This document shows positions 9,101 to 33,160 of a stretch of DNA of 64,000 bases, piece by piece. The stretch comes from Bolinopsis microptera. Its lineage: Eukaryota > Ctenophora > Tentaculata > Lobata > Bolinopsidae. The position numbers and the translations under genes are program-made. The stretch covers positions 20,050,494 through 20,114,493 of the forward strand of contig NC_087082.1 in assembly GCF_026151205.1 (NCBI RefSeq). Direction: 5' to 3'. The notes below the pieces were generated by a model that had not been told where the DNA came from, did no database searches, and was given only the letters and a program-made list of their open reading frames with translations. Within the stretch, counting starts at the first letter, position 1. The number at the start of each line of letters is the position of its first letter.

Positions 9101-12100
9101 TGGGGAAACTAACCGAATTGGAAGCTAGAATGTAGAGTTGGGGAAACTAACCGAATTGGAAGCTAGAATGTAGAGTTGGGGAAACTAACCGAATTGGAAG
9201 CTAGAATGTAGAGTTGGGGAAACTAACCGAATTGGAAGCTAGAATGTAGAGTTGGGGAAACTAACCGAATTGGAAGCTAGAATGTAGAGTTGGGGAAACT
9301 AACCGAATTGGAAGCTAGAATGTAGAGTTGGGGAAACTAACCGAATTGGAAGCTAGAATGTAGAGTTGGGGAAACTAACCGAATTGGAAGCTAGAATGTA
9401 GAGTTGGGGAAACTAACCGAATTGGAAGCTAGAATGTAGAGTTTGGGAAACTAACCGAATTGGAAGCTAGAATGTAGAGTTGGGGAAACTAACCGAATTG
9501 GAAGCTAGAATGTAGAGTTGGGGAAACTAACCGAATTGGAAGCTAGAATGTAGAGTTGGGGAAACTAACCGAATTGGAAGCTAGAATGTAGAGTTGGGGA
9601 AACTAACCGAATTGGAAGCTAGAATGTAGAGTTGGGGAAACTAACCGAATTGGAAGCTAGAATGTAGAGTTGGGGAAACTAACCGAATTGGAAGCTAGAA
9701 TGTAGAGTTGGGGAAACTAACCGAATTGGAAGCTAGAATGTAGAGTTGGGGAAACTAACCGAATTGGAAGCTAGAATGTAGAGTTGGGGAAACTAACCGA
9801 ATTGGAAGCTAGAATGTAGAGTTTGGGAAACTAACCGAATTGGAAGCTAGAATGTAGAGTTGGGGAAACTAACCGAATTCGAAGCTAGAATGTAGAGTTG
9901 GGGAAACTAACCGAATTGGAAGCTAGAATGTAGAGTTGGACTCAAACAGGCCCTCTGAATATCGTCTCCCTGCTCCTTGTTCAGCTTCTCCAGGAACGCT
10001 CGAGATGTGTTAAAGTTGTTGAGTAGTTTCTCACCGTATTCGAGACGACGCAGCGCGTTTGTCCACAGTCGGAACTGCAGCTCGTTTTCAACACAGATAC
10101 ACCTGAGAGGGGTGAAGCGTGAATATTTTGACAAGATAAGACGTGATGGTATAGTATTGTAGAGAAAGTGAAACTAACCTGGTAGAGAAAGTGAAACTAA
10201 CCTGGTAGAGAAAGTGAAACTAACCAAGTAAAGTGAAAGTGAAACTAACCTGGTAGAGAAAGTGAAACTAACCAAGTAAAGTGAAAGTGAAACTAACCAG
10301 GTAGAGAAAGTGAAACTAACCAAGTAAAGTGAAAGTGAAACTAACCAGGTAGAGAAAGTGAAACTAACCAAGTAAAGTGAAAGTGAAACTAACCTGGTAG
10401 AGAAAGTGAAACTAACCAAGTAAAGTGAAAGTGAAACTAACCTGGTAGAGAAAGTGAAACTAACCAAGTAGAGAAAGTGAAACTAAGCAAGTAAAGTGAA
10501 AGTGAAACTAACCTGGTAGAGCGGTGTTGTTCTCGGGTGTTGGTCTTGGTTCGTATCAGGAAGCAGTATTCTGTGGGAGCTTTGTGCTGTTTCTTGAACT
10601 CTTTATTGTTGTTCGGCAAGAACATGTCGTTCTCTTCTGTCCTAAACGAAACTACGTGTTACAATCAAGGCAAATAATTAACTAATTATATAATTGATAT
10701 CATATTTTGATCGCAATTTTATTGCTGTTGGTATTGGGCAAATGCGAAGAATTTGCGTCAAAAATGATCAGTGTTATTACAATTTTACAAATGCTGAAAC
10801 AAACATGATCACAAGTTTGATCGCTAAAATAACACATTCCCGAGTTAGATAACTAATCCTACATATTCCCTCGACACAGACAAACCTAACCAATATCCGA
10901 TATCTAGTATTAAGGCAACATCTCCATATGCATAACCTAAGAGTAAGCAAAGCGCTAGACGCAATCCTATCGTTGGTCCTAGATCCAGCTCCTCGAAACA
11001 AGAAAAAAATACTCCCAGGAGTCCTAGATTCAGCCCCTCGAAACAAGGAAACAATATTCCCGGAAATGTTACTAAGTGCAAACCTTGAGAAGCATGTTAT
11101 AACTAAGTATTGTTACTAGTTGCTAACCTTGAGAAGCATGTCCAAGGCAGGGATTGCGACTTATTCTTAGCTTTTCCAGCGTAGTAGATACCACTGTCCC
11201 TTATCACGAAGTTCATTTTCCTCCAACTCTTCTTTCCTGACTTCAGCCAATGGACACCTTTCAGACCTACAGTGGTTTTAGTGAGGAAATATGATAGATA
11301 TGTAATAATAATGTTTAATCAATTTGACAAAAAATTTAGTATCAAAACTTGAATTTCTAAATAGAGATTTAGAAATTGTTAACGGATAATAATCAACAAC
11401 ACGAGTGCACAATATACAGTAAGTTACATAAGACAATCAGTAATTATGGGGATAAATAGCTAACTGACCAATTAATTGATCAACAGACAACTAACAAAGA
11501 TAACTAATTAGCTAATTAGCTAATTAGCTGATTAGCTACTTATACCACGTGATATGACCTACCTATGCTGGGTATCCTTGTGTTAGCTGTATTGGAGAAG
11601 AAATCATCAATAAGAACCTGTCTACACTCCCTATTCAGGTCCACTACATTAGCGTACGTGTCTACAGGCTTTAGGAAGAGTTGAGGTCTTCTGAATAACT
11701 CGTATCTAGAGGAAGTGGTTAGTTTAGCATTGTTTAGATAGTGAGTTATCAGTTAAGGGTGAGTTAAGGGTAAATCACCCGGTAATCAGAAAGTAATCAT
11801 AAAGTAATCAGAAAGTCGATAAAAGGTCAGAAGTTCCAGAAAGTCTAAAATTGCACAAAGTCCAGAATTGCAGAAAGTTAAGAAATTTCAAAATGTAAAG
11901 AAAGTATTAACCTACGTAAGTACTACGTAAGTATTACGTAAGTATTACGTAAGTATTACGTAAGTATTACGTAAGTATTACGTAAGTATTACGTAAGTAT
12001 TACGTAAGTATTACGTAAGTATTACGTAAGTATTACGTAAGTATTACGTAAGTATTACGTAAGTATTACGTAAGTATTACGTAAGTATTACGTAAGTATT

Positions 12101-15100
12101 ACGTAAGTATTACGTAAGTATTACGTAAGTATTACGTAAGTATCACGTAAGTATTACGTAAGTATCACGTAAGTAATATGTAAGTATTACGTAAGTATTA
12201 GTACACTAACTTTCTGACGTTGTTTCGGAAGTACATCTTGTTAGTAGAGTCTCGGCTCCAACTATTCAACACATCGTACACTATCTCGTGATCCTCTAAC
12301 TCTCGTTCTGAGATAAGGATTAATTAGGTTTAATTATTAATTAGTCAATAACTAAACTATCAACTAATTATTAATTAGTCAATAATTAAACTATCAACTA
12401 ATTATTAATTAGCCAATAATTAAACTATCAACGTGCGTGTTGGGCATATACCTTTGAGACTTCTTTAATCTTGCAAATCTATCCGTTAATAGCGAGTATA
12501 TATATATCGGTTAAAAGCGAGTTCTAATTTCAAATAATATCTCCAATGACATTTGACAAAGCTTTCAGTTTCAAGTTCCAACAATAGTTCAATGTTAAAA
12601 GGTTGGCACTTTGCCACATACCTATTGGCACTTTGCCACATACCTATTGGCACTTTGCCACATGCCTATTGGCACTTTGCCACATACCTATTGGCACTTT
12701 GCCACATACCTATTTCCAGATCAGTGATGTGTTCCACTAGAGTCCAGTCAGATCCAGGTTTGTAATAGTTCTTCTCCGCCAGAACCTGACACACCTCCCA
12801 AGCAGTCTGCTTCTGTTCCACCCAGATAGTCTTGGAGCTGTTGTTAACGTTGAATACTTTCATTGCTATCTTCAGGTTGCTGGCGATCTTCAGTTTTTCT
12901 AGCGCTATTTTTAATTTCTCCTGTGAGCAGGGTTCTGTTTAGAGTTTGGAGTTTATATTTTAGGAAATAAAATAACAGTGCAGTGCAGTATCATTTGTCG
13001 CAGAAATCAGAATAATCAGAAATTATCATCTGTCTATTGTTATGCGACTAATGAATAATGTTCCAGTCCATAATCTTTATACCCATTGAGTATTGATTTA
13101 ATTAAAAATATATTAGATTTGGGCACTGTTGGAGATATGAACCATATCTTGTTTTGACACCTGACCATTCTAAATCCAGAATGGCTGTCACGTGTAAAAG
13201 ATTAACCACCAGTAAATACAGTAACCATAGCAACATAGCTAACCTTCTTCAAGATAGCTGCTTTCTCCTCCTCAGTCAGATCCTCCTTCTCCTTAAGTAT
13301 CATAGTAAGTCTGCGCTGTATTTTAGCTGACTTTGGGCCGGGAGTAATAGGTGTAGTTGGGCTCGGTTCCTGTAACGCACCAGTGTGAAAACTACACTTA
13401 CACTTGGGACATGTCAGCTTGTGTGGGGGTTTGGGCGAGGGGGTTGCTCCCTCCCTCCCTCGCGAGGGGGTTGCTCCCTCCCTCCCTCGCGAGGGGGTTG
13501 CTCCCTCCCTCCCTCGCGAGGGGGTTGCTCCCTCCCTCCCTCGCGAGGGGGTTGCTCCCTCCCTCCCTCGCGAGGGGGTTGCTCCCTCCCTCCCTCCCTC
13601 ATTCCTACTCCTCTTTTTGAACATCATGTAAACAAACGCAATGGTATTGTGTGATAAAAACAAGCAAAAGAAAACATACGGGGTCATTAAAGAACGGTTC
13701 GTTGTCAGGGACACGGATAGGAACATTCATAGGATCAGTCTTGAAGTCGTTCTGAAAGTGGGCAGTTTGTTAAACTACATACCTAGTTTAATTCATTACA
13801 CGTAACAACTTATGTTATTATTACAATAAGCGGGTGTCTAAAGTGTTCCTGAACGGAGATATGGCTTCTGACAAGTTTAACGCGGACTTTACATTGACGG
13901 GAACGTGTTGGTACGCGATTAGAACTTTAGAACGTTATTAAAAGCGAGTCTGAATATAGAACCCACGAAGGAACTTCGTGCTCATTTCCATGGAAACAAC
14001 ATTTTGTGTGATATACAAAACTGAAAAGGCACTTAAGAGGCTTTGGGTTTCGACACTCAATTTTCAAAACCCCAACTTTGACACGGTAAAGCTCCACCCT
14101 GTATTTTGAGACTGTTTTGATAAATTCGTCGTCAAGATTCTGATATAATTTTATGTTACCAAAGCTGCCGATAAAAGCTGTGTTAAATTTACTTGGAACC
14201 AATAAAAGTGAAAGTTTGAACTGACCTCTCTGAAATCAGTAGTTGTGCTGTTGAGACTCATTTTACTGTCGTACAACTCAGAGGAAGAAGAAGTTAGGTA
14301 GCTGCTGACTCCGCTGCTCTTGCTTATGGTTGAGTGAGGGGTGGTAGACATGGTGTACATGGACCTGGGGGTCGGGAAACTTAAGGGACTGTTAGAAATC
14401 ATGCGAATTTACATTCAAGAGACGGTTCAAATCGTACAATTTTTCCATGTACTGAGATCGAAACGGGAACCGGACGCGATGGCGGTACTTTCTTAAAAAG
14501 GTGAATACGAGAGCGAATCACATGAATCACTTTAATTATTTATCGATAAAGAGATGCTTAAGTAGTACACGTGAATAAGAAATGTAAAAGTTGTAACTCA
14601 CCCATTATTGCCGCTGCTAGGGTTAGAGTGAGAACTAGCTCCAGAGCTAGTAGTACACACAGAGGTTCTCTGATCGAATACGGAGGAAGCAGGACGTCCC
14701 TCAGATACCATGCTACCTGGTCTACTGTCCCGCTTGTCTGGTTCTGGAGGGTGCTCTGTTAGTGCCACTTTGGAGGCTCTGTCCGTGTGTCCGTGTGTCA
14801 CTCTGGACGCTCTGTCCGTCTGTCCGTCTGTCACTCTGGAGGCACTGTCTGTCTGTCCATCTGTCACTCTGGAGGCTCTGTCCATCTGTCCGTCTGTCAC
14901 TCTTGAGGCTCTGTCCGTCTGTCCGTCTGTCACTCTGGAAGCTCTGTCTGTCTGTCCGTCTGTCACTCTGGACGCTCTGTCCGTCTGTCCGTCTGTCACT
15001 TTGGGGAGTCTGTCAGTCTTGTCTTTTTTCTTGTTTTTCTTTCGTTTCCGAAATGATGCGAACATACTTTTAGGGCGAGATTTCAAGGCTTGGTCAAAGT

Positions 15101-18100
15101 TTGTTTCAGTTGTAGAAGTCCAACTCTGAGGTCGTTGGTCGCTAATTGATCTAGTTGGTCTACCTAGTAACTCACGACTTGTCTCCATCTCAACTGACTT
15201 GTTCCTCTCTAGACTACTTTGATACTGTTTCTCTTTTGATACTAAAGTCCTACTCAATATTATCTCATTTGTCATACTCGAAGGTCTGCGTAGGTCAAAA
15301 GTTTTGAACTCTTTGAATTGTTGTGGGGACCAGCTCATAGGTCGGTCATTTGTCAGTCTACAACTAGAGATATAGTCTGGGAGAGTGGTTTCATCCGGAG
15401 ATGAATGCTTTTCTGTTGCACTGTCAGAATCGTCTAAACAAGGATTTGTAATAATCTGTCAAAAAAGAAAATCTTTGCCAATTCTTGTAATCCCAAAGAA
15501 GCAAAAATATAAAATAAAAAAGCGGGTTTCAAAATGTGTAGGTTCCAGTGACTCACCAGTATTATCAGTACTACAGGGCGGAGGAGGAGTGAGGGCGGGG
15601 GAGACTGGAGCTGGAGACATTGTGGGAGGAGGAGGAGGAAGAGAACCTGCATCTGATATTAGGGAGGTAGCTGAAGCAGCTAGGGAGGTGGGAGGAGGCC
15701 CAGGTTGTGTTCGTTCTGGTGGAGCGGTGGTGGTACTCCTAGATCGCTTTCTAAGTCAGCTGCAGAAAATAACTGTGTTTAAGAAAGCATCAAGTGGAAA
15801 TGCCTCCGTAAAATTGTAACAGGCAATTACAAAAGTTAACAAGTTACAAATCAAAGTTACAACTTAAAGTCCAATCTGCTAATCTGAATAGTTACCTAGA
15901 GCAGAGCTGAGATCGTCATCAGGAGGAGGGGGAGGCATTACCTCTACTGGAGGGGCAACAGGTGCAGGTGGGGGAGGCATAACCTCTACTGGAGGGGCAA
16001 CAGGTGCAGGTGGGGGAGGGGGTGTAGCTCTAGCCATCTCCTCGTATATAGTGGGAGGTGGGGGCAGGTTGTCTGAACTAGCACCCAGAGGAGCTGGCAG
16101 GGATCCAAACTGCATCTGAAATATCAGTGGGTGAGTTTATTTTATTTTGTGTATTAAACCACGTAATACGACTGTTGTAATAGGAGAACTGTTGACGGCT
16201 TTAATTAACCGGTTTTCACCGGTTCAACGTAATTACAGTCATTACATCAGATGTCAAACCTTAGCTTTGGGATTGGTAGGGGTTGGTATATCGTTGAAAC
16301 CAAACGAGGCATTGATATCCTCCATATCGTTACACAAATCATCTAGAAGCGAATCTAAGTCTTTCTCATCAGTGTCTGAAGAATAGTTAGGTCAGTATTA
16401 ATTCCGGCACTGTAGAAATAAAAGATTTTTTTGTTGCCGGTTCCAAAATAGCCCATGTAACTTGACGATCAGCCAAGATAATTATAAATTATCCCATCTA
16501 ATTAGTAACCTAATTACATAGCGTGTAGTACATTGAGTGTTGTATTACGAGGCTGTCTGTGGTAATGACCATAGCATATACATGATAAAGTTGGTGAAGG
16601 AGCACCTAGAGACGCTAATGTTGATGAAGGAGCACTGCAGAGGCCAGAGTAAGACCCCACAGAAGAAGCCCTGAAAGAGACCTCCACCACTCGTCACCAC
16701 TAGTTACCATAGTTACACCACTCGTCACTATACTACACCACAATTAAACCACATCTAATGACAAACGCTCATATTGATGAAGGAGCATCTACTTGTCAGC
16801 AATTTAAGTCACGTGAGAGCAAATCAACCATTCAGCTCACAGTTTTACCTTTCTCAGCCAATCAACGCCTTGGTTATCTTAACAGGTAAAATTGCCTTCC
16901 AATTAATGATAAAACGAGAGTTTAAACTTAAAACTAAAACAAGACTCCGACTTATGAAAAGGAGGCTTGTTAAAATTCGCAGACTTTTAAAACTAAATGT
17001 TATACTTACTTAACTTTTTGATCGTGCCATTTGCTATGACTCGCATAGCTGATAATAATTATTTCTCCAAATTTATGTTTCTTCTCTTTCCTCTGGCATT
17101 TTAAAAGACAATGGACAAGTGTTCAGATCGGAACAAAACAAAATGATCAACACAGTATTTACACTTACTGAAATAGGATCGTAGCATTGAGATAGAAGTG
17201 GGCCGTTTTGCGAGGAACGCCACAGCCGCCATTGTGAGCTAGATTATTCCTTTTACAAGACAAATTATAATTTGGAAACAATAGCTTATTGGTCATGGTG
17301 AATGGTGGAGAATATATCAGTGGTTTTAGCGGAGTATTTATCAATGAGTACGAGGTCGTGACTAGAGACAAATATGTACCCGATATTATAAAAATGCAAG
17401 TTCAACTGACGACTCAAGTCTCAAGACATGTATTAATGAAAAGACAATGGCAAGTTCGAATAACACAATCATAAAAATGAAAATCACGTACGATTTAAAT
17501 GAAGCACATAGACTCAGGAAGGAAAGAAGGCATAAAAATTATAACCGTCCAAACAAATATGATGAATATTATGTTCGTACTAATGTTTACTATGTACTAC
17601 TATGTTCGTACTAATCCAGCAATGTGAAAGAGGTTTATTGGCTTATTGATTTAGCTATTAATTGAGTAAAGCATTAGTTTCTACTCCGAATAACAAAAGA
17701 AGTATCATGGCCAGGATTTAGTACCCACACTGGAAACTAAAAGACTGAGAAGACAGGACAAGTTAACGAGACATCCTGCGTAATGACGTAACCATTACCT
17801 GCTTTAGAGTGTGCTATTATGCAGGTACTGCAGGTACTACAGGTAGTACAGGTAATAGTGCCTAATAATAATAACCTATTGTCCAGTCCTGTGCTCCTTC
17901 ACCAATATTAGCGTCTCTGTGCAGTGTGCAGACACACTACTCTGTATTGGTCTGTGCACAATAGACCGCCTCCACACTGCCAGCAGCAGACACAGGACTT
18001 ATATTAGGACTACATCCCCCCTCCCTCTCTCTGATATCATGCAACCAATAACCTGCTGATATCCGGACCATGTGGCCTGTGTGGGCCAATGGGAGCGCTG

Positions 18101-21100: not shown

Positions 21101-23516
21101 GCAGATATATCTTCTTGCTGAGTAAACCTTGCTATGATGCACACTATAACCATATAACCAGTATGTAGTGATGATAAGATACTTAAAGTTAGGTTTGGTA
21201 TAATACAAGTAACGGGGGTATTTACTTATTTAGATCACGAGATCAAGTGGTGAGCTGGAACAATGCCCAATATGTGAGCTGGAAAAATGCCAAATATGTG
21301 TCTAGAACTACTGACTCAAGAAGTGGAATGTTGCCAGGGTAATAATCAAGAAGTGAAATGTTGCCAGGGTAATAATCAAGAAGTGGAATGTTGCCAGGGT
21401 AATAATAAATGCCTTGGCTCGATGTTCTTAAGAACCTCGATCGACTTTTGAAAAATATTACCTTTAAAATCGTGCTCACCATAAACTATTTAAAAATGGG
21501 AGAGGGGTCCATCGTCACTTACGCCATGTTGACTCCCCTTAAAACTAGTTAAATAATTATTCCTTAAAAACTTAAGTACTCACAGTAGGTGGAACCTTCT
21601 TCCTGAGTCTGACAGTGTCAGATTCTCCGAGAGCAGCAGGCATACCAGACAGTTCCCGTTCCATCTCCAGGAACTGATCCATTATATCATCCAGCTCCGT
21701 GTCCATGGTTTGTCCGGGCATCTCTTGTGATTTGGGGGCTGGTGCTAGATCCTGGGGAAGGGAGGGGAGGTTAGATATTGTGATGTGGGGGCTGGTGCTA
21801 GATCCTGGGGAGGGAGGGGAGGTTAGATATTATAGATATTGTGATTTGGGGGCTGGTGCTAGATCCTGGGGCAGGGAGGGGAGGTTAGATATTGTGATTT
21901 GGGGGCTGGTGCTAGATCCTGGGGCAGGGAGGGGAGGTTAGATATTGTGATGTGGGGGCTGGTGCTAGATCCTGGGGAGGGAGGGGAGGTTAGATATTAT
22001 AGATATTGTGATTTGGGGGCTGGTGCTAGATCCTGGGGAAGGGAGGGGAGGTTAGATATTGTGATTTGGGGGCTGGTGCTAGATCCTGGGGCAGGGAGGG
22101 GAGGTTAGATATTGTGATTTGGGGGCTGGTGCTAGATCCTGGGGAAGGGAGGGGAGGTTAGATATTGTGATTTGGGGGCTGGTGCTAGATCCTGGGGCAG
22201 GGAGGGGAGGTTAGATATTGTGATTTGGGGGCTGGTGCTAGATCCTGGGGAGGGAGGGGAGGTTAGATATTATAGATATTGTGATTTGGGGGCTGGTGCT
22301 AGATCCTGGGGCAGGGAGGGGAGGTTAGATATTGTGATGTGGGGGCTGGTGCTAGATCCTGGGGCAGGGAGGGGAGGTTAGATATTGTGATTTGGGGGCT
22401 GGTGCTAGATCCTGGGGAAGGGAGGGGAGGTTAGATATTGTGATTTGGGGGCTGGTGCTAGATCCTGGGGCAGGGAGGGGAGGTTAGATATTGTGATTTG
22501 GGGGCTGGTGCTAGATCCTGGGGCAGGGAGGGGAGGTTAGATATTGTGATGTGGGGGCTGGTGCTAGATCCTGGGGCAGGGAGGGGAGGTTAGATATTAT
22601 AGATATTGTGATGTGGGGGCTGGTGCTAGATCCTGGGGCAGGGAGGGGAGGTTAGATATTGTGATGTGGGGGCTGGTGCTAGATCCTGGGGCAGGGAGGG
22701 GAGGTTAGATATTGTGATGTGGGGGCTGGTGCTAGATCCTGGGGAGGGAGGGGAGGTTAGATATTATAGTGTGGGGGCTGGTGCTAGATCCTGGGGAGGG
22801 AGGGGAGGTTAGATATTATAGATATTGTGATTTGGGGGCTGGTGCTAGATCCTGGGGCAGGGAGGGGAGGTTAGATATTGTGATGTGGGGGCTGGTGCTA
22901 GATCCTGGGGCAGGGAGGGGAGGTTAGATATTGTGATGTGGGGGCTGGTGCTAGATCCTGGGGAGGGAGGGGAGGTTAGATATTATAGTGTGGGGGCTGG
23001 TGCTAGATCCTGGGGAGGGAGGGGAGGTTAGATATTATAGATATTGTGTTGTGGGGGCTGGTGCTAGATCCTGGGGCAGGGAGGCGAGGTTAGATATTAT
23101 AGATATTGTGATTTGGGGGCTGGTGCTAGATCCTGGGGCAGGGAGGGGAGGTTATATAAATTTCTAAATATTGTGGTACTATCTTATTGCTGTAATCTTT
23201 ATGTTTGAAAGTTGTATACTGGAGGTCAAATGTATCGTTTTCTGGGAATGTCAGGGGTTGGATTTCTAAAAGAATTTACCGTCTACTCAAAGGTTTGTTT
23301 GTAGAGGGAGGGGTACAGCGTTCTAGAGTAATTATGTAATACATTCCAGAATGACATAAAGAATTTGCTTATGTAATATTCTAAACGTAAAAGACAAAAG
23401 ATAAAAACTTAGCTAAAGAACTCACCCGATTGTCAAGGTCGGCTCCTTTCAGCGCTGAGTAGAGCTTGTCTTTATCATGGTCAGGTATAAAGGGTAGACT
23501 ATTCAATGATGCATCG
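5921..23516 (-). CDS. RAPH1/APBB1IP-like: MRL-family adaptor (MIG-10/RIAM/lamellipodin), 17 exons
   Basis: MRL proteins link Ras-family GTPases and membrane phosphoinositides to Ena/VASP, profilin and talin, and so control actin protrusion and integrin activation. Exons read on the minus strand, 5' to 3': 23516-23426, 21751-21584, 19901-19862, 16375-16260, 16115-15942 (or to 15896), 15746-15557, 15433-14602, 14388-14226, 13751-13680, 13369-13244, 12920-12710, 12307-12211, 11705-11563, 11266-11128, 10641-10513, 10102-9912, 6114-5921. Junctions are GT-AG and phases match throughout. The one doubtful junction is near 15.75-15.94 kb. From 21,751 to the stop this gives 2,985 nt, about 994 residues. 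The order (talin-type helix, prolines, RA, PH) is that of RIAM and lamellipodin. Identification rests on the RA-PH motifs (EDHE...WSRD, GKKSW, SGIYY, KAPTEYCF). Which vertebrate paralogue is closer cannot be told. The start is uncertain: a Met in the 21.7-kb exon, or further upstream. Confidence 0.88.
6292..9938. repeat. 38-bp minisatellite (~96 copies) carrying the MRL 5' splice site
   Basis: On the minus strand each unit reads AACTCTACATTCTAGC, TTCCAATTCG, then GTTAGTTTCCCC. The first 26 bp equal the last 26 bp of the PH exon (ending at 9,912) and the rest equals the start of the intron. Every copy therefore repeats the exon/intron boundary TTCG|GTTAGT. The main variation is GAGTTGGGG versus GAGTTTGGG; the donor core appears intact in all copies. 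Reading past the first donor meets TAG at once. Confidence 0.97.
9912..10641 (-). CDS. MRL gene, exons for the second half of the PH domain
   Basis: Two exons, 10641-10513 and 10102-9912, joined in phase 2. The first carries FKKQHKAPTEYCFLI, matching the KAPTD(Y/H)CFVLK strand of the RIAM/lamellipodin PH domain. The second carries LQFRLWTNALRRLEYGEKLL, matching the C-terminal PH helix (TLxQWVxGIRIAKYGKxLY in vertebrates), then a linker ending SPTLHSSFQF. The Trp and the YG(E/K)K(L) pattern are conserved. Both exons end in 5' splice sites that are multiplied into minisatellites in the following introns. Confidence 0.85.
10159..10520. repeat. 23-bp-based minisatellite carrying the 10,513 donor
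   Basis: The minus-strand unit CTCTACCAG|GTTAGTTTCAC repeats with interposed variants (TTACTTGGTTAGTTTC). The exon itself ends CGCTCTACCAG, so exon end and donor form one repeat unit. About 14 donor-like GTTAGT cores occur within 360 bp. Confidence 0.93.
11128..11705 (-). CDS. MRL gene, RA-PH linker and first half of the PH domain
   Basis: Exon 11705-11563 continues the RA domain into the linker: KYELFRRPQLFL matches the KYAVFKNPQNF(Y)L segment of RIAM. Exon 11266-11128 opens the PH domain with GVHWLKSGKKSWRKMNFVIR and SGIYYAGKAK, matching GxLxLKxDGKKSWK(R)RYF and SGIYYVPKGK of the family. Phases are 2/1 and 1/2 and agree with both neighbours. The GKKSW basic loop is where family members contact phosphoinositide. 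Confidence 0.88.
11505..11538. repeat. short TAATTAGC tandem
   Basis: Four consecutive TAATTAGC/TGATTAGC units lie in an MRL intron. TAATTA is a homeodomain-type core; no functional evidence. Confidence 0.6.
11913..12200. repeat. 11-bp minisatellite, ~25 copies of TTACGTAAGTA
   Basis: It lies about 10 bp inside the intron that follows the RA exon at 12,211. Each unit holds the palindrome TTACGTAA, the consensus of PAR-bZIP/E4BP4-type factors. On the plus strand it also holds GTAAGT, a perfect donor in antisense. A few CACGTAAG variants occur at the exon-proximal end. Confidence 0.95.
12211..12920 (-). CDS. MRL gene, Ras-association (RA) domain exons
   Basis: Exon 12920-12710 starts with EKLKIALEKLKIA, the helix preceding the RA domain in RIAM. 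It continues through the ubiquitin-like fold: MKVFNVNNSSKTIWVEQKQ, then WEVCQVLAEKN and DWTLVEHITDLEI. Exon 12307-12211 gives ERELEDHEIVYDVLNSWSRD and NKMYF, matching EDHExxVEVLxxWxRDxxNK. Both junctions keep the frame. The donor at 12,710 is itself part of a 22-bp minisatellite in the next intron. Family members bind Rap1 or Ras through this domain. Confidence 0.9.
12325..12432. repeat. ~37-bp repeat, three copies
   Basis: AATTATTAATTAGTCAATAA followed by AACTATCAACT is repeated three times with small changes, in the intron just before the second RA exon. Confidence 0.8.
12600..12714. repeat. 22-bp minisatellite (5 copies) carrying the RA-exon donor
   Basis: The minus-strand unit contains AATAG|GTATGTGGCAAAG. 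The exon ends GAAATAG and its donor is the first GTATGT of the array, so the 5' splice site is present five times. Confidence 0.92.
13244..13751 (-). CDS. MRL gene, two exons before the RA domain
   Basis: Exon 13751-13680 (72 nt, phase 0/0) encodes NDFKTDPMNVPIRVPDNEPF. Exon 13369-13244 (126 nt, phase 0/0) is proline- and serine-rich, then basic, and ends KEDLTEEEKAAILKK. This leads directly into EKLKIALEKLK of the RA exon, as LTxEEKxxKIKLALEKLK does in RIAM. The reading frame also stays open upstream of the 13,369 acceptor through a CPKCKC segment and the 27-bp repeat to about 13,726. A longer exon is possible, but the acceptor GCGTTACAG fits phase and family better. Confidence 0.72.
13437..13592. 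repeat. 27-bp minisatellite, six copies
   Basis: The unit has GAGGGGGTTGCTCCCTCCC and TCGC, with a TCGCGA at each junction. It lies between two MRL exons and is open on both strands because 27 is a multiple of three. The repeated peptide is GREGATPSR. Taken as intronic, although an extended exon cannot be excluded. Confidence 0.93.
14226..15433 (-). CDS. MRL gene, Ser/Thr-rich exons with an 11-residue coding repeat
   Basis: Exon 15433-14602 (832 nt) encodes about 276 residues: an acidic/Ser-rich start, a basic stretch (RKRKKNKKKDK) and about eight copies of an 11-residue DGQTDRASRVT-type repeat (33 bp on DNA), then an SS/SN-rich end. Exon 14388-14226 is Ser/Thr-rich (SKSSGVSSYLTSSSSELYD). 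The phase 2/1 junction joins them through a split Gly codon. No domain is recognised. The repeat is probably disordered, and its copy number is likely to vary between alleles. Confidence 0.7.
14758..15010. repeat. 33-bp coding minisatellite in the MRL gene
   Basis: About eight copies encode DGQTDRASRVT-type units. Each is dense in GTCTGTC/CTGTCCGT on the plus strand. It lies within exon 15433-14602, and the length keeps the frame for any copy number. Confidence 0.93.
15557..16115 (-). CDS. MRL gene, proline-rich exons (Ena/VASP- or profilin-binding type)
   Basis: The 16115 exon reads MQFGSLPAPLG, then LPPPPTIYEE and two 15-residue repeats of the type PPPPAPVAPPVEVM, then PPPPPDDDL. The 15746 exon adds LPPPPPTMSPAP and TPPPPC. 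RIAM has similar N-terminal LPPPP segments before its RA domain, and such motifs recruit EVH1 domains or profilin. The join between the two is unresolved. A donor at 15,896 (phase 1) does not fit a stop-free acceptor. A donor at 15,942 (GAG|GTAATG, phase 0) fits the AAAG acceptor at 15,746. Alternative splicing or an assembly base error is possible. Confidence 0.6.
16260..16375 (-). CDS. MRL gene, conserved DLDSLLDDL exon
   Basis: The exon encodes TDEKDLDSLLDDLCNDMEDI and INASFGF. This matches the second N-terminal helix of RIAM/lamellipodin (DLDALMADL in vertebrates), part of the region that contacts talin. Phase 2 at its start takes the single A left by the 19,862 donor, giving Asn. The donor AAG|GTTTGA is non-ideal but in phase with the next exon. 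Confidence 0.75.
16591..19492. repeat. dispersed ~25-bp motif in both orientations (six copies)
   Basis: GACGCTAATGTTGATGAAGG plus AGCAC or a close variant occurs at 16,591 (partial), 16,611, 16,764, 17,891 (inverted), 19,401 and 19,470 (inverted). All lie in the intron between MRL exons at 19,862 and 16,375. The last two form a hairpin. Confidence 0.8.
19400..19493. ncRNA. hairpin with 22-bp arms (miRNA-precursor-like or foldback)
   Basis: CGCTAATGTTGATGAAGGAG at 19,401 pairs with TGCTCCTTCATCAACATTAG at 19,471, leaving a loop of about 48 nt. The 22-nt stem has a single G-U-type mismatch. Size and arm length resemble an animal microRNA precursor. However, the arm sequence is also a dispersed intron motif, so a foldback repeat is at least as likely. 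Confidence 0.3.
19862..19901 (-). CDS. MRL gene, 13-codon micro-exon
   Basis: This 40-nt exon has a clear acceptor (TTTTCAG) and donor (GTAAGT) and encodes NSAAYRMSIMALG. It is in phase with the 21.7-kb exon (phase 0) and the 16.3-kb exon (phase 1). The segment corresponds to the FSYRFSxxNxNEAL motif just before DLDALMADL in vertebrate MRL proteins. Confidence 0.65.
20430..20550. repeat. two short arrays: GAGACACTGGT and CTTCAGAGTTGAGACACA types
   Basis: About five 11-12-bp units followed by four 18-bp units, in the intron between MRL exons at 21,584 and 19,901. Confidence 0.85.
21305..21408. repeat. ~35-bp repeat, three copies
   Basis: AATCAAGAAGTGGAATGTTG and CCAGGGTAATA are repeated three times in an MRL intron. 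Confidence 0.85.
21584..21751 (-). CDS. MRL gene, N-terminal talin-binding-type helix exon
   Basis: The 56-codon exon begins DLAPAPKSQEMPGQTMD, then the amphipathic helix ELDDIMDQFLEMERELSGMP. This parallels the talin-binding helix of RIAM (DQMFxxLLGEMDLLTQSL in human). The two Met codons at its start are possible translation starts if the upstream exons belong elsewhere. Its 3' splice site, CCCCAG|GATCTAGC, is the first of about 26 tandem copies that fill the preceding intron end. Confidence 0.75.
21727..23152. repeat. ~53-bp minisatellite (~26 copies) carrying an MRL 3' splice site
   Basis: On the minus strand each unit reads CTCCCCTCCCTGCCCCAG|G followed by ATCTAGCACCAGCCCCCA: a pyrimidine tract, AG and the first bases of the exon starting at 21,751. 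Some units carry an extra 8-11 bp (TATAGATATT). The exon-proximal copy alone continues into the unique coding sequence (AAGAGATGCCCGG). About 26 tandem 3' splice sites thus precede one exon. Confidence 0.96.
23426..23516 (-). CDS. MRL gene, upstream 30-codon exon
   Basis: A strong acceptor (TTTTCTCCCTCTCAG) and donor (CGG|GTGAGT) bound an exon encoding DASLNSLPFIPDHDKDKLYS and ALKGADLDNR. It ends in phase 0, matching the 21,751 exon. It begins with one base left over, so the upstream exon must end in phase 2. The exon ending at 33,142 does so. Confidence 0.65.
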
Positions 23517-23828: not shown

Positions 23829-23857
23829 AATCCAGCTCTAGTAGTAGAGCTGGATTA
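23829..23857 (-). terminator. perfect hairpin followed by a T run
   Basis: AATCCAGCTCT and AGAGCTGGATT flank a 6-nt loop (11-bp perfect stem). On the minus strand the stem is followed by about ten T. It looks like an intrinsic or Pol III-type terminator. There is no associated small-RNA gene that can be recognised. Confidence 0.25.
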
Positions 23858-24282: not shown

Positions 24283-24372
24283 GGTACAGAAGTCACGTGG
24301 TATTGAAGTCACGTGGTACAGAAGTCACGTGGTACAGAAGTCACGTGGTATTGAAGCCACGTGGTAAGAAGA
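24283..24372. promoter_or_regulatory. five tandem CACGTG E-boxes (16-bp repeat)
   Basis: GTACAGAAGTCACGTG and GTATTGAAGTCACGTG units repeat five times; one has GCCACGTG. GTCACGTG is the core bound by MiT/TFE and USF-type bHLH factors. About 0.8 kb upstream of the 23,516 exon. Confidence 0.5.
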
Positions 24373-24952
24373 CCAAGTCCTTAGACAGTGACAGAGAGCC
24401 TTTAAATCGTGAGATGAATCTGGGGGGGGGCTGAGGGTAACAGTAACCCTAGTAACAGTAACCATAGTAACAGAGGGGGGCTCATGATTAGCACCAGAAA
24501 CTGCTAATGGTTGGGAGGTGGTACTCTACCTAGAGGTCCCGAGCTGGCTGCTGATAAAGTATTACAGTTGGCAAGGATGCTGGTACGGGACAAATTACGA
24601 TTATTAAATTAAGAGAAATCAATTCAACTTATCAGAACTGTATAATTATTTTTAGTAAAAACCTCAAGAAGCACGCGTTGTGCGACTAGTTAGTAGTTAC
24701 AGACGAAGTGACGCTAATAAAGTAATCATATGAGTATTTAAGTAATTAGGAGAACTAGACGAAGTGGGACGAAGTGCTCTCAGAGACCCGGCTAGTAGAG
24801 GGACAGTGTCCGGCTAGTAGTGGGACAGTGTCCTGGACTACTAATCACGACTAGAGGGGCTACTGACCGGGGCTAAATATAGGGACTACTTCACCGCCCC
24901 GTGAACTAGAGCACTTTGCAACACCTCCACAATGTGCTCCGCTTGTTGAGCG

Positions 24953-25056
24953 GTGCAGCCAGCCAATCAGCACACAGAAGCCGTGTCACGTGGTGTGTGA
25001 AAGCCAATCAGGACACAGCAGCTGTGTCACGTGGTGTGTGAGAGCCAATAGGAAGA
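24953..25056. promoter_or_regulatory. two tandem CCAAT + CACGTG modules
   Basis: AGCCAATCAG ... GTGTCACGTGGTGTGTG occurs twice about 56 bp apart, followed by a third AGCCAATAGG. It could be an alternative promoter 1.5 kb upstream of the 23,516 exon. It lies immediately beside the 18-bp array. Confidence 0.45.
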
Positions 25057-25184
25057 AAGCGTGCCAGGACAATAGGGACCAGCATCCAGCAAGCTTAATA
25101 AAACACACTACAGATATTAAACCGGAGAGTTCCGCACAAAAGGTATATCCCAACAGTATCGGCTGCAGTATCAGCTGCAGTATC

Positions 25185-26780
25185 GGAACACTGTTTATAA
25201 CAGGAACACTGTTTATAACAGGAACACTGTTTATAACAGGAACACTGTTTATAACAGGAACACTGTTTATAACAGGAACACTGTTTATAACAGGAACACT
25301 GTTTATAACAGGAACACTGTTTATAACAGGAACACTGTTTATAACAGGAACACTGTTTATAACAGGAACACTGTTTATAACAGGAACACTGTTTATAACA
25401 GGAACACTGTTTATAACAGGAACACTGTTTATAACAGGAACACTGTTTATAACAGTAACACTGTTTATAACAGGAACACTGTTTATAACAGGAACACTGT
25501 TTATAACAGGAACACTGTTTATAACAGGAACACTGTTTATAACAGGAACACTGTTTATAACAGGAACACTGTTTATAACAGGAACACTGTTTATAACAGG
25601 AACACTGTTTATAACAGGAACACTGTTTATAACAGGAACACTGTTTATAACAGGAACACTGTTTATAACAGGAACACTGTTTATAACAGGAACACTGTTT
25701 ATAACAGGAACACTGTTTATAACAGGAACACTGTTTATAACAGGAACACTGTTTATAACAGGAACACTGTTTATAACAGGAACACTGTTTATAACAGGAA
25801 CACTGTTTATAACAGGAACACTGTTTATAACAGGAACACTGTTTATAACAGGAACACTGTTTATAACAGGAACACTGTTTATAACAGGAACACTGTTTAT
25901 AACAGGAACACTGTTTATAACAGGAACACTGTTTATAACAGGAACACTGTTTATAACAGGAACACTGTTTATAACAGGAACACTGTTTATAACAGGAACA
26001 CTGTTTATAACAGGAACACTGTTTATAACAGGAACACTGTTTATAACAGGAACACTGTTTATAACAGGAACACTGTTTATAACAGGAACACTGTTTATAA
26101 CAGGAACACTGTTTATAACAGGAACACTGTTTATAACAGGAACACTGTTTATAACAGGAACACTGTTTATAACAGGAACACTGTTTATAACAGGAACACT
26201 GTTTATAACAGGAACACTGTTTATAACAGGAACACTGTTTATAACAGGAACACTGTTTATAACAGGAACACTGTTTATAACAGGAACACTGTTTATAACA
26301 GGAACACTGTTTATAACAGGAACACTGTTTATAACAGGAACACTGTTTATAACAGGAACACTGTTTATAACAGGAACACTGTTTATAACAGGAACACTGT
26401 TTATAACAGGAACACTGTTTATAACAGGAACACTGTTTATAACAGGAACACTGTTTATAACAGGAACACTGTTTATAACAGGAACACTGTTTATAACAGG
26501 AACACTGTTTATAACAGGAACACTGTTTATAACAGGAACACTGTTTATAACAGGAACACTGTTTATAACAGGAACACTGTTTATAACAGGAACACTGTTT
26601 ATAACAGGAACACTGTTTATAACAGGAACACTGTTTATAACAGGAACACTGTTTATAACAGGAACACTGTTTATAACAGGAACACTGTTTATAACAGGAA
26701 CACTGTTTATAACAGGAACACTGTTTATAACAGGAACACTGTTTATAACAGGAACACTGTTTATAACAGGAACACTGTTA
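25185..26780. repeat. 18-bp minisatellite, ~88 copies, almost invariant
   Basis: The unit is GGAACACTGTTTATAACA. Apart from one G-to-T change near 25,457 (CAGTAACACT), the copies look identical. Being 18 bp, it is open in several frames on both strands and produces spurious frames of about 600 codons. Confidence 0.98.
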
Positions 26781-26952
26781 CAATTACTCAAACAGTAAAT
26801 CTGGGAGGACCTTACTAATATGTAGTATGATCTAAGTGACGAAACTGAAGGTCGCACTGTATCCAAATAGTACTCCTACAACCCCTCCTTGTACTCAAGT
26901 ACTGGCACTGAGCAAACATCATCACAATGGAAGTTATCTTCAGGAAGAGGAG

Positions 26953-27030
26953 CAGTAACGAGCCAATCAGAGCACAGAACGAGAGCTGTTAGCCAATCAG
27001 AAGGCTGGAGATAAGTCACGTGACACGTGC
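26953..27030. promoter_or_regulatory. CCAAT/CACGTG cluster
   Basis: GAGCCAATCAGAGCACAG, TTAGCCAATCAGAAGGCTGG and AAGTCACGTGACACGTG lie within 75 bp. The phrase AGCCAATCAGAAGGCTGGA recurs at about 49,098. Confidence 0.4.
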
Positions 27031-27947
27031 GAGGAACTAGGATATTAGAGTATATTTTAGGTAGAGCATGTAATTAATGTGTTATGTGCAGACATGCAAC
27101 AGACATGTAACAGACATGTAACGTCGAAACAGCAAAAGAAAGACAATCCCAACAAATTAAAGAGTTAGGAGATAATGATTACAGTCACAAGACCGCTATA
27201 TTAAGCATAAAAGTGAAATAATGTTGCGAGTAAAATATAATTATGTCGAAGTTCTCGTGATTATATTACGGGGAAATGATATTATATTCTAAATAAACCA
27301 TGACAATGATAGCTTTTCTACATAGCAACTTGGAGCGAAATATCTAGTATGGAGAGGTATAAATGCCGAAATTTTCCCAGCGTCTGATGAACAGAAGCCT
27401 TATTCCCCGCCCTAGCACTGTAGTGTAACTATAGCACTGTATTGTATGTGTGGATTTATTAAGTTATTAGAAGAAACTAATGGTTCATAAAGTGCGTTGA
27501 TTTGTTTGGCGCCAAGTCCAAGGTGAGGTTACATTTGCCATATTAATGCGTATGATTCGATTAATACCTTTTTTATGAGGATAAATTATGTTATAATTCA
27601 CGAACACTGAAAAAAGTCACGTTGACTGCTGCTGGATAAAAATAGAAGAGAGTAGTCCAAGTTTGTTTTGGCACGTGACAGCTGTTTTGTTTATTTCCGA
27701 AGAAATAAGCAAAACGAATTACAGCAAGAAAAAACAATGTGAGACAAGAAACTCCGAATAAAACCCAATACAGGTAAATGAAACCCGAAATAAAGGTACT
27801 TGACCAGATATAACCATCTATTCAACTACCAACATAATCAACTACATACAGACACAGTACGATAAAAGTATTCAATATTCGTAGACTACCCCGGGGCAAA
27901 CAGGTCTCTGAGTAGATGAAGTGTTCCAGCACAAGCATACAGACGTA

Positions 27948-28022
27948 ACCACGTGGGCTGGTTTCTGAGCACGTGGGCTGTTTCTGAGCACGTGGGCGAG
28001 GGGATTGGTCACGTGATAGGCT
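27948..28022. promoter_or_regulatory. three CACGTGGGCTG repeats plus ATTGGTCACGTGAT
   Basis: GCACGTGGGCTGTTTCTGA-type units occur three times, followed by an inverted CCAAT (ATTGG) joined to TCACGTGAT. Same motif pair as the other clusters. Confidence 0.4.
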
Positions 28023-30865
28023 GGTTGCTGATAAGAGTAGCTATTATCAACGTGTGAGCTGTTGAGAGTGGGGTTTCGGACATGTGTTATAGGAAGCAGA
28101 TCCTACGATTTCGAGTTGGCGTAAAAAGTATGATTTCTGTAGAAGACGATTCTTTATTTAGAATAGTTGAGCCTTATTTCATAGTCGTGAACTAGTATTA
28201 TCTTATCTAGTGTTATTGTAGTTCAGAATATCGATAACCATACCTCTTGGCTCAAATGCGTTAATTTTTATTCACATAATTCCATTTATCTATAATTCTT
28301 CTTCTTCGTAGGGGGCTGTGGTCTTTACTACTAAAGTGGTCTTTATCTATAATTATTTACTACCCAAAATAGCTTATTTTAACGGTGTAAATATTAAATA
28401 AGCATGATTAAATTGGCACAGAAACGACTGAAGCGTGCATTATTTAAGTTTTAACCACAAATTGCTTTTACCGAGCAAATTGAAACAGATAAAGTATGTA
28501 CAATCATTACTATTGGATGTATAAAGCCCACCTTGAATCAATTCTCATGTATTGTACTGTTAAACTGTGTGTCCCTGTCTTATAAAAAAATGAATAACAA
28601 CTTAAATTTGTAAAATTACAACCAAAAGTCAACACTGCAAGGTAATAGTACCAATTATCCAAATGACGACAAAGAAATGGAAATAAAAAACTGACTGCAG
28701 ACAAATACAGTCTTAGCGGGAAATTTGTGAAATGGATGCAGTTGTAATCTTCAGTAAGATCAGAGACTAATGAGGAACGAAAAGGGAGACAGTTAATGAA
28801 GATGTCTAAAATCAGACTTCAAAAAGTGGGGAATATTATCTGACGATATCATCATCATGAATGAATGATAGTTGCAAACTTAAAACAGAGCACTAGTATA
28901 ATAGTTTATTAGATCACCAGTATTACTTGCAGGTGTGTGTGCGTTATCTGTCAGCAGCATGCATGACCATGCAGGTGGGTAAATTGTAAATAGAGTGCAG
29001 CGCACGCCGCACGCGTTGCGCGCAATGTACTATAATTGACGATATCACTTTTCTATACAAAATGTTCGTAATTCGCGCGCTACAGAAAGTCATTTAATCT
29101 GGTTTTTTTGTGTAGCGTGATTTGACGTCACTGGGAGTGGGAAATATAAATATCCGTGTAATTTGCTAAATTGCTCGAAACTACACTACCGTATATGGTA
29201 ACATAAAGCTTGCCGAGACGATATGTTAAACAGTAGCGTCAAGCTGATCCACAATCTAGGTAACACTACTAATAAAGGGATGTCTGTGCGTTTTCAAGTA
29301 AATTTAGGAACTTAAAAAGAAACTGGACTGGGCAAAAAGACACGGATTACCTAATTTAAATATCATCAATAGTGAAGAGAAACGAAGACACCAACCTCTC
29401 GTAGTCTGGATAAAGAAACTAAGTTCACCACGATGAACGGATAATATGATGAAAATGGGGAAGCGGAATTTAAAACTTAATTACAACATCCCTAATTACA
29501 ACATTCTTTATGGCGACACTAGTTAGACTGTCAGACCAGAGCAGTCATCGTAAGTAACTTTGCAGCTCACAAACACACGCTTTAAGAACAATAACCAATA
29601 TCGTAATCTTCAAAGAATCTCTGGAAACGTGTTGTCATTACTTTAAATAACATCACAAAAGCAACTCAGTATTTCCGTAAGCTAATTGCAGGTGACGTTT
29701 GGAAGCAGTGACCAAGCAACTGTGGAGTGCTATATATTAAAGGGTGACTCAGAGCGAATACCAACCAAGATTAAATTTGTCCAATCAAGTGCAGTCCTTT
29801 CAGCGTCTTTTTAAAGGCACTGAGGGCCCAAAAAAGGTAAGTAAAGAGGAGGGCGGAAGGACGAAAATAGATTAAGCAAGCCGATACAAAAACTGAACAT
29901 AGACAGGGTAAAACAAGTCATGATGTAAGTTATGAAGAAAGTTATGATTTTTAACTGAACGAGGGGAAAACCACCACATTTCCCGGTATGAGCTCCAAAT
30001 GAGCAAAGCTAAAAACTAATTAATCTGCAAAACGACGTAATTAGACTGTCATGATTAGGTCGTGTGTTGCTACATGCTACATGCTACAGTACATTTGAGC
30101 ATGTGGTAGCTACAAAACCAGTTATTAATACACATTATGTAGAGACATACTAAGAGGTATACCTTGTGCACCTTGTAGCGTATAATCATTGAGATTCACT
30201 TTTACAATACATATTTAATCAGACTCTAACCTACACTGCCTAAATCACTCTACGTTGAGACTCTTGTGTATTGTAATTGAGGGCAAGTCAGTGATTTGCC
30301 TAACTTTAGTTAGTGACGAGAAATATAACCACACAATTACGAGATAAGGTTCACAAAATCAAGAAACCCACATTTCCAGAAAACCATGACAAACATCTAG
30401 ACACGCTCTGCAGAAAGTGTGGTACCATGGTAACTGTAATTATTAATCTCGGTCTTTATTACACAAATTACTCGGGGCTATAAAACCAATGCCTGCTCAT
30501 CAGATACTAATTAATGTTAATTACTGTTAATTAATGTTAATTAATGCGAATACCAAAATTACTTTACAGGTATTTATAATGTATTACCAGTTTAATTTTA
30601 TAGCTGACGCACACAGAGAGGCAGCTGTAAAGTTAAATCCAAGCGCAAAACAATGTGTTACCATAGTTACACCACTAGTTACCATAGTTACACCACTAGT
30701 TACCAAGCGCAAAACAATGGACCAAACTAAGATTTTAGTAATCCAATTAGTAAATGCTGGACGCAATTTTCTCCATTACCACAACCATATAAGGCAAGAT
30801 TATGGATTGGAAGTAAAAGATATCTAAATACTTAAGATCTGACAACTGTTCAAAATAAAACCACT

Positions 30866-31315
30866 TGAAAGTGTGGTACCATGGTAACTGAAAGTGTGGT
30901 ACCATGGTAACTGAAAGTGTGGTACCATGGTAACTGAAAGTGTGGTACCACGGTAACTGCGTACCATGCTCGGTACCATGGTAACTGTTGGTTAACATGG
31001 TAACTGAAAGTGTGGTACCATGGTAACTGCGTGTTACCATGCTCGGTACCATGGTAACTGTTGGTTAACATGGTAACTGAAAGTGTGGTACCATGGTAAC
31101 TGAAAGTTTGGTACCACGGTAACTGCGTACCATGCTCGGTACCATGGTAACTGTTGGTTAACATGGTAACTGAAAGTGTGGTACCATGGTAACTGCGTGT
31201 TACCATGCTCGGTACCATGGTAACTGTTGGTTAACATGGTAACTGAAAGTGTGGTACCATGGTAACTGCGTGTTACCATGCTCGGGTACCATGGTAACTG
31301 CATACCATGCTCGGG
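30866..31315. repeat. 23-bp-based array of X-box-like palindromes
   Basis: Units GAAAGTGTGGTACCATGGTA+ACT alternate with GCGTGTTACCATGCTC and GTTGGTTAACATGGTA. About 15 GTACCATGGTAAC cores occur. A single seed copy (GAAAGTGTGGTACCATGGTA) lies 450 bp to the left at about 30,414. Confidence 0.93.
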
Positions 31316-32786
31316 TTGGTGTTCTAACCTGATAGTGATAAACTTAGACCTGTCTTAAAATGAGTTGAAACCCCCTGTTAACCAATGAAACCACTCCTCA
31401 TTACACCACGTGATCAGAGTTGGTGTCAGGTGACCACTTATTGCCCTAATATGGTCAGAGTGTATCAAATTAATTTAAGAATCGTCTTTCTGGCGAAACA
31501 TAGAGGAACACATTATTATATACAGTCTTAAATACCGATTATACCTTAAATACCGGCTCAAACGGACTCAATTCATGGCTAATTAGATAATTAAGTAATC
31601 ACGTAATTTAAAATATGTATTAACTGTATTATCTTATTCTACGATTGCTGGTAGTTGCTCTATGCAAATCATAAACGACATATTTTATCTCGTTATATGT
31701 ATCATATGTATAGATTATAGAAGGTATTATCGTGTGTTTATGAGACGTATTATCTGGTAAGTGATAGTAAAATATAAAAAGAAGCTCACGACATAACATA
31801 ACAATAAAGCAGACAATTCAATGATCCTTATCAACAAATTCAATATGTAGACAATTTTATGAGCGACACAATCGCATTGTATATTATATTGTATCGGATC
31901 CCATGAAATAGAACGACACTTATCATATAAACTCAGAAGGTAAGTTAGTGAACTTTTTATAAGGATACGCTTTTTATAAGGATACGCTGCAAGATAAGGT
32001 GCATATAATAGGGATAAACAGATAATATCTAACTTATATATTATAACTTATATAACTTATATAACTTATACAGATACAGATAAAGAGATACTATCTAACT
32101 TATATATAACTTAAACAGATACTATAACTACTTGTATGATTCTTCGTATCCCCTCAACCGTATCCCAGTGGTTACTTGTACATTAATTGTATTGTGGGAT
32201 GTCATGATATTGTTGTTGATATAGATTGTTGATAATTACCCTGACAATGAAGCGTAAAGAGTACATCTTTTAAGAGCCCGGCTTATGGGAATAACCTCAG
32301 ATGCGAGTATTAAGTATTAACACCTTCGTGGACAGTGTAAACGCTTAAAAGAGAACTATAACACGTCATGACAAGGCCCTTTAAAGCACGATCGTGTACG
32401 AATATAAAAAACATTTCGTTTCCTTCTTTTACGCTAGTTCGTACCATGTAAAATGAGGAAGGTAATGTTTAACATTGCCACGAAGACTGAAGAGGAACCA
32501 CTTGATCCTTCTCTTAGTATCCATAGTAACCATGATGTTAACGTAGTATCTGAGTTCTATGTTCTGCTCAAAATGAAAATATAGCTTCTCAACTATTCCG
32601 TATTCAAGAAAAACATCAAATAAAAAGCCGATACCCAGAATTAGGATACTCATAATAACGATACATTTTTGCTGATCCGTAATATCAAACGTATAACCAA
32701 CCACTAAAATTACCAAAAAAGGAAGTTCAATGTTAGCTCAAAAACAGCTCAAAGACATCAGCCGTTTTACCTACCTCTTGATGAAG

Positions 32787-32805
32787 ACCCCCCCCCCCCC
32801 CCCCG
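32787..32805. repeat. homopolymer C tract (~18)
   Basis: An uninterrupted run of C just downstream of the large exon; its length may be a sequencing artefact. Confidence 0.8.
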
Positions 32806-32808
32806 GCC

Positions 32809-33160
32809 CCTTCAACCTACCTCTTATACTTATAACTATGGTTAATGGTAACTAGTGGTGTTACTATGGTAACTAATAGTGTAACTATGGTAACTAGTGG
32901 TAACACAATGTTTAACCTACCTCTTATACTTATAACTATGGTAACTAGTAGTGTTACTATGGTAACTAGTGGTGTAACTATGGTAACTAGTGGTAACACA
33001 ATGTTTAACCTACCTCTTATACTGCTTGATAGACACAGTCTCCACCACACCACTAATATCCCCTACGTCCCAGCACACTGGTAACTATGGTAACTAATAG
33101 TGTAACTATGGTAACTAGTGGTAACACAATGTTTAACCTACCTCTTATACTGCTTGATAG
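32809..33160. repeat. partial tandem duplications of the exon end and donor at 33,142
   Basis: TTTAACCTACCTCTTATACT (minus strand: exon end, AGAG|GTAGGTTAAA) occurs at about 32,810, 32,912, 33,004 and 33,131, separated by GTAACTATGGTAACTAGTGG units. The copies at 33,004 and 33,131 share up to about 75 bp of coding exon (TGCTTGATAGACACAGTCTC...). The donor is thus present about four times. Confidence 0.85.

What the first reader, a model, noticed from the sequence alone, without database searches (positions are those of the whole stretch)
9912..33160. Recurrent rule: minisatellites in this gene are anchored on splice junctions
Five arrays include a junction: donors at 9,912 (38 bp), 10,513 (23 bp), 12,710 (22 bp) and 33,142 (partial), and the acceptor at 21,751 (~53 bp). 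Unit sizes and sequences are unrelated, so this is repeated independent seeding rather than one mobile repeat. Possible causes are nucleation at nicks or R-loops over nascent splice junctions, or selection that tolerates expansion only where the exon-proximal copy stays functional. It is also a route to new introns by tandem duplication of splice-site-containing DNA.
Basis: partly seen in the sequence, partly recalled or inferred. Interest (0 to 1): 0.88.

Follow-up and report, generated by a model that had tools for sequence, protein, structure and literature searches.

The report
Tandem repeats copied across splice sites
Several introns of this animal gene begin or end in short tandem repeats that were copied straight across the exon edge, so the splice signal is repeated many times; the same thing is known from lancelet genes as "mirages", and here it looks frequent but not clearly drawn to splice sites.

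Summary
The arrays are real and include the exon edges. The gene is a minus-strand MRL-family (lamellipodin/RIAM-like) RA-PH gene. A second copy of its 3' part, 110 kb away (21 synonymous, 0 non-synonymous changes in 363 codons), dates events: the 38-bp, 96-copy array at donor 9,912 is one unit there; donors 15,557 and 14,226 are single in the window but duplicated there. In all, 6 of 14 donors and 1 of 13 acceptors tested are spanned in at least one copy. Four duplications readable to the base began with 0-1 bp of homology. These are "mirages", known from amphioxus, here in a 264.65-Mb genome with about 13 large contigs (probably a ctenophore). "Anchored on splice junctions" is only partly supported: 2.7 spanning arrays are expected per gene copy against 4-5 seen. 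Myosin and kinesin samples give 6 of 89 donors touched against about 1.5 expected, but a stricter test gives 2 of 89, no excess. One word test favours donors 3.8-fold by clusters; another fails its control. Most likely: frequent short tandem duplication, filtered by selection for a working exon-proximal copy, with at most a modest donor bias.

The parts
6292..9939 (-). 38-bp minisatellite, 96 copies, spanning donor 9,912 (28 bp of exon + 10 bp of intron per unit)
   Evidence: single unit in the other gene copy
9912..10102 (-). PH-domain exon ending in the array
10159..10521 (-). compound 23/48/71-bp array at donor 10,513; present in both gene copies
10513..10641 (-). PH-domain exon with donor in array
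11081..11141 (-).
   Evidence: entered there as 11134, six bases off. The other copy has a 28 bp x 2.0 array across this donor but fails the 14-mer test
12603..12714 (-). 22-bp array, 5.1 copies, spanning donor 12,710 (3.1 copies in the other gene copy)
12710..12920 (-). RA-domain exon
14226..14364 (-). exon whose donor is single here but repeated at a 69-bp shift (49 matching bases) in the other gene copy
15557..15758 (-). exon whose donor is single here but lies in a 44-bp, 12-copy array in the other gene copy
21586..21751 (-). exon with acceptor 21,751 inside an array; its donor end is uncertain
   Evidence: ORF and splice-site score
21725..23158 (-). 53-bp array, ~26 copies; units with TATCTAAC, pyrimidine tract and CCCCAG
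32845..33209 (-). compound 21/42/93/128-bp array spanning donor-like site 33,142
   Evidence: exon by ORF only

Best explanation
The arrays are 'mirages': short tandem duplications that happen to include an exon edge and then expand as minisatellites. Shown: the repeats span the junctions, arose separately at different junctions and in different gene copies, and where the breakpoint could be read to the base they began with 0-1 bp of homology. Inferred: this genome makes 20-70 bp tandem duplications very often, perhaps by fill-in of staggered breaks or paired nicks, and existing ones grow or shrink by slippage or unequal exchange. Copies that break a reading frame are removed. Inside an exon units of a multiple of three survive; at an exon edge other lengths survive too, because the exon-proximal copy of the signal still splices correctly and the rest is intron. 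Short introns make hits on their ends common. A further preference for donors, perhaps two- to fourfold, is possible but unproven. Donors may tolerate it better than acceptors because the correct donor is the first one transcribed.
For: 38-bp unit single in the other copy, 96 copies in the window, no shared bases at the breakpoints. Copy-specific repeats at donors 15,557 (44 bp x 12) and 14,226 (69-bp shift). Two-copy duplications over kinesin donors L066 (38 bp) and L074 (53 bp), each with 1 bp of homology. Purifying selection on eight exons: 21 synonymous, 0 non-synonymous of 363 codons. Stops 1, 25 and 14 codons beyond donors 9,912, 10,513, 12,710. The arrays that I place inside coding exons have units of 9, 12, 33, 42 and 45 bp, all multiples of three, while junction units are 22, 23/48/71, 38, 44, 53 and 69 bp, only some of them multiples of three. 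Array density 0.61-0.94 per kb in four samples. In-gene spanning is near the uniform-seed expectation.
Against: Myosin and kinesin donors touched by arrays exceed the uniform expectation (6 of 89 against about 1.5, p 0.0045), and AGGTGAGT sits in tandem clusters 3.8 times more often than its mutants (p 0.0025); if these hold, chance plus selection is not enough. No transcript data show which copy is used. Two of the six spanned donors (14,226 and 11,128) have incomplete repeats (49 of 69 and 19 of 44 bases) whose breakpoints could not be read.
Confidence: 0.62

Rival explanations
1. Donor sites are mutational hotspots: transcription-linked nicks or R-loops at exon ends seed duplications there.
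For: 6 of 89 family-sampled donors touched against about 1.5 expected. 6 of 14 donors but 1 of 13 acceptors of this gene spanned in at least one copy. 0 of 45 myosin acceptors spanned. AGGTGAGT clusters 3.8-fold over mutant words. Four breakpoints with 0-1 bp homology.
Against: Strict 14-mer test: 2 of 89 donors (0 of 49 myosin, 2 of 40 kinesin) against 45 of 2,842 intron positions, no excess. In-gene p 0.13. AGGTWWCT, not a donor word, is in more tandem pairs than AGGTWWGT (10,756 against 7,324). By whole counts rather than clusters the AGGTGAGT advantage is small (1,085 pairs per 8,474 words against 1,483 per 18,133). Donor bias can also come from selection.
Confidence: 0.22
2. Arrays nucleate on a short motif (GGTTAC/GGTAAC/GGTTAG) that happens to look like a donor; splice sites are caught because they resemble it.
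For: AGGTWWCT pairs 10,756 against 203 reversed. GGTAAC in 13 of 186 unit families against 2.7 expected. The 9,912 and 10,513 units share GGTTAGTTTC.
Against: Donors at 12,710 (GTATGT), 15,557 (GTGAGT), 14,226 (GTCAGT), L066 (GTAAGT) and L074 (GTAAGA) and the acceptor 21,751 do not centre on that motif.
Confidence: 0.1
3. Assembly artefact: arrays or the second gene copy are collapsed or misplaced haplotypes.
For: The second copy is 89% identical over the whole alignment and could in principle be a haplotype.
Against: Repeats reach coding sequence in both copies with coherent exon ends. The copies lie 110 kb apart on one contig; on the right the listed similarity ends near window 15,440. On the left it runs to the edge of what I fetched, so its full extent is unknown. 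Even as haplotypes they would show the same length change.
Confidence: 0.06

Closest known systems
Mirages of amphioxus (Adh3, globins BflGb6 and BflGb9, troponin C; similar repeats in PGBD5)
   Same: Minisatellite-like tandem duplications that span 5' or 3' exon-intron boundaries, with splice signals in many units, unit sizes 10-160 bp, and length differences between haplotypes (passages read in PMC3087553, and PMC3902484; the first report, Canestro et al. 2002, is not held, and is known to me only through these)
   Different: Another genome (264.65 Mb, about 13 large contigs); up to 96 copies here; four breakpoints read to the base; copy-specific events dated by a second gene copy; splicing not tested here
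Intron gain by tandem genomic duplication of AGGT
   Same: Tandem duplication that includes a splice signal (passages of PMC3443670; search listing of PMC4974935)
   Different: Here duplications lie at the ends of introns and add copies of an existing signal; no new intron was shown
Internal tandem repeats at exon-intron boundaries of human segmental duplicates
   Same: Repeat number differs between gene copies and reaches the boundary (passages of PMC2812944)
   Different: Those are reported to make novel introns and alternative transcripts; not shown here

Membership tests
Mirage | tandem repeat unit spans an exon-intron boundary | tested here: met
Mirage | unit length about 10-160 bp | tested here: met
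   22-69 bp in the MRL gene
Mirage | splice signals repeated in units | tested here: met
   sequence of units
Mirage | copy number unstable between related copies | tested here: met
   96 against 1, 5.1 against 3.1, 1 against 12; gene copies, not proven alleles
Mirage | normal splicing is not disturbed | not testable with these tools
   no transcripts; only frame and purifying selection
Mirage | somatic instability (reported for Adh3) | not testable with these tools
   one assembly only
Intron gain by tandem genomic duplication | a new intron between duplicated AGGT sites in a former exon | not tested
   intron positions were not compared with other species
MRL family (RIAM/lamellipodin), host gene | RA-PH module | tested here: met

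The most novel reading that the evidence does not exclude
In this genome, probably a ctenophore's, exon ends are a preferred target of homology-free short tandem duplication, so that roughly one donor in fifteen (6 of 89 sampled) is touched by an array, and the process is still running between young gene copies. That would make mirages a general animal process outside lancelets.
Probability: 0.25. Interest if true: 0.75.

Novelty: new member of a known kind. Interest (0 to 1): 0.45.

Why it matters
It extends junction-spanning minisatellites, which the papers I found describe in lancelets, to another animal genome, gives a before-and-after pair at base resolution, and turns the question whether splice sites attract duplication into a simple genome count. 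If a donor bias holds, it would bear on how introns grow and how new ones may arise.

Tried and rejected
A first gene chainer over-predicted tiny exons and was dropped. Exon calls were then checked against reversed sequence: 20 against 1 at score 16. One search read the minus-strand myosin loci in the wrong orientation; one search corrected this. The 234-kb region gave few genes besides this one, so homologous exons of myosin and kinesin were used. Of 73 myosin matches 55 lay inside fetched loci. From the kinesin list I left out the two one-exon full-length matches and a near-identical second gene copy (C11, 11.34 Mb) when typing it in, and dropped four windows of another near-identical copy (C13, 4.98 Mb); of the 84 donor windows left only 40 could be fetched. 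One myosin donor (the -5 array) has an uncertain position; one search gives -1. In-gene position coverage was no use as a null, because arrays cover 39% of positions (1,867 of 4,767). In one search TRF's best-scoring periods (273, 48, 73 bp) stood in for shorter base units, which makes the expectation somewhat high. The AGGTWWGT tandem count looked like strong support (7,324 pairs against 574 reversed; 51,555 single words against 43,144 reversed) until the AGGTWWCT control gave 10,756; I do not count it as support, and did not count AGGTWWCT single words. The acceptor word test (13,923 against 3,805) is partly one repeat family and was set aside. Units outside this gene with a donor score of 5 or more: 13 against 6 reversed, of 148; inside it 13 against 2, of 48, with a score matrix partly trained on this gene. 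The array 13,435-13,596 was left out of the parts because its exon end is uncertain. A paper on tandem repeats in Daphnia had nothing on splice sites in the terms searched.

Full report
What is there. The window lies on a 20.8-Mb contig of a 264.65-Mb assembly with 232 contigs. Nearly all matches fall on C1-C13, and the nine of these whose length I saw are 16-26 Mb. This resembles the ctenophore Bolinopsis microptera, about 254 Mb with 13 chromosome-scale scaffolds (passages of PMC10232365), or Mnemiopsis leidyi, 248 Mb with karyotype 13 (listing); the species is my inference. Minisatellites are dense: 0.94 per kb in the window, 0.61 and 0.87 per kb on its two sides, 0.67 per kb in myosin loci.

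The gene. Minus-strand exons encode an RA-PH module that matches RAPH1 4gmv (E 4.6e-48) and RIAM structures, with Pfam RA and PH: an MRL-family gene. A second copy of about the first 15.5 kb of the window lies 110 kb lower on the contig. In eight aligned exons the copies are 98.1% identical, with 21 synonymous and 0 non-synonymous codon differences of 363. This supports the exons that I used.

The arrays and the junctions. A sixth repeat, 19 bp at a 44-bp shift, spans donor 11,128 (entered there six bases off). Of 14 donors tested in the window, four are spanned by a near-exact copy (9,912, 10,513, 11,128, 12,710). Of 12 in the other copy, four are (equivalents of 10,513, 12,710, 14,226, 15,557). 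Together 6 of 14 donor sites are spanned in at least one copy, against 1 of 13 window acceptors (21,751) and 0 of 10 acceptors in the other copy.

History. The 38-bp array has 96 copies in the window and a single unit in the other copy. The sequence on both sides of the single unit matches the two ends of the array, with no shared bases at the breakpoints (read by eye). At donor 15,557 the window has one copy and the other gene 12 of 44 bp, starting from a 52-bp duplication with about 1 bp of homology (read by eye); at 14,226 the other gene alone has a repeat at a 69-bp shift, with 49 matching bases. The kinesin donors L066 and L074 carry two-copy duplications of 38 and 53 bp with 1 bp of homology. 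So seeding is independent and, in the four cases that could be read, essentially without homology. Growth by slippage or unequal exchange is inferred.

Is it more than chance? Within the gene: 18 arrays in 15 introns, 2.68 expected to span a junction by at least 5 bp if units fall uniformly in collapsed introns, 5 observed (one uncertain), p 0.13. The other copy, which shares some of these arrays: 12 arrays in 11 introns, 2.64 expected, 5 observed (the same uncertainty), p 0.13.

Outside the gene. Exons of the myosin head were found by family search; 49 donors and 45 acceptors could be placed. Arrays of score 50 or more start at -5, -1, +1, +7 and +8 of donors, then at +43 and beyond (+12 is a second reading of the +8 array; one array lies wholly upstream at -131). 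None spans an acceptor; three end 3-15 bp before one. Of 84 kinesin donor windows 40 were fetched. Three are spanned (L066, L074, L080) and one array starts at +23. Together 6 of 89 donors are touched (start at +1 or before); with 0.67 arrays per kb and a 25-bp unit (my choice) 1.5 are expected, p 0.0045. Against this, the strict 14-mer test finds 2 of 89 donors against 45 of 2,842 intron positions, no excess; that null counts every copy in an array and is conservative.

Words genome-wide. AGGTGAGT: 8,474 single words and 1,085 tandem pairs (reversed control 7,650 and 223). Its three T-mutants together: 18,133 and 1,483 (reversed 19,628 and 1,175). By whole counts the difference is small (12.8% against 8.2%). 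By clusters, which I counted by eye on the listed places (10 in 23.0 Mb of C1; 13 in 49.2 Mb of C1 and C2 for three words), the donor word is 3.8 times more often in clusters, p 0.0025. But AGGTWWGT (7,324 pairs) is beaten by the non-donor AGGTWWCT (10,756 pairs): arrays here are rich in a GGTWAC core. The word tests therefore do not agree.

How it works. Exon-proximal copies keep the reading frame: past donors 9,912, 10,513 and 12,710 the frame stops after 1, 25 and 14 codons. The arrays that I place inside coding exons have units of 9, 12, 33, 42 and 45 bp, all multiples of three, while junction units are 22, 23/48/71, 38, 44, 53 and 69 bp, only some of them multiples of three. This is what a selection filter would leave. 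Why donors outnumber acceptors is open; the order of transcription is one possible reason (inference).

What is known. In amphioxus such structures are called mirages, with units of 10-160 bp, in Adh3, globins and troponin C, with similar repeats in PGBD5; they were already proposed as a route to new introns (passages of PMC3087553, and PMC3902484). Searches that joined ctenophore with minisatellite or splice-site terms showed no such report: of 233 papers only 12 were listed, none of which mentions ctenophores, and one search listed three with unrelated titles. The library lacks most subscription journals. I therefore file this as a new member of a known kind.

Noticed in passing
whole genome; window e.g. 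30,866-31,316 and 37,107-37,526: Minisatellites share a GGTWAC/GTTACC core, like an RFX X-box half-site (name recalled): AGGTWWCT tandem pairs 10,756 against 203 reversed, GGTAAC in 13 of 186 unit families against 2.7 expected.
   Followed up: partly
window 1-15,500 and G000:C11:19945600-19957000: A partial second copy of the gene 110 kb away, 21 synonymous and 0 non-synonymous codon changes of 363 in eight exons; could be a tandem duplicate or a placed haplotype.
   Followed up: partly
window 57,908-63,900: Three similar open-frame pairs in tandem on the minus strand; the one scanned has a weak BTB match below the cut-off.
   Followed up: no
window 33,775-34,242 and 34,490-34,812: In-frame 12-bp and 45-bp minisatellites inside one 626-codon open frame, which has no Pfam match at E 0.1.
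   Followed up: no
G000, Pkinase search: Many kinase-domain matches cover the whole profile in one open frame, so intronless kinase genes seem common here (best candidates only).
   Followed up: no
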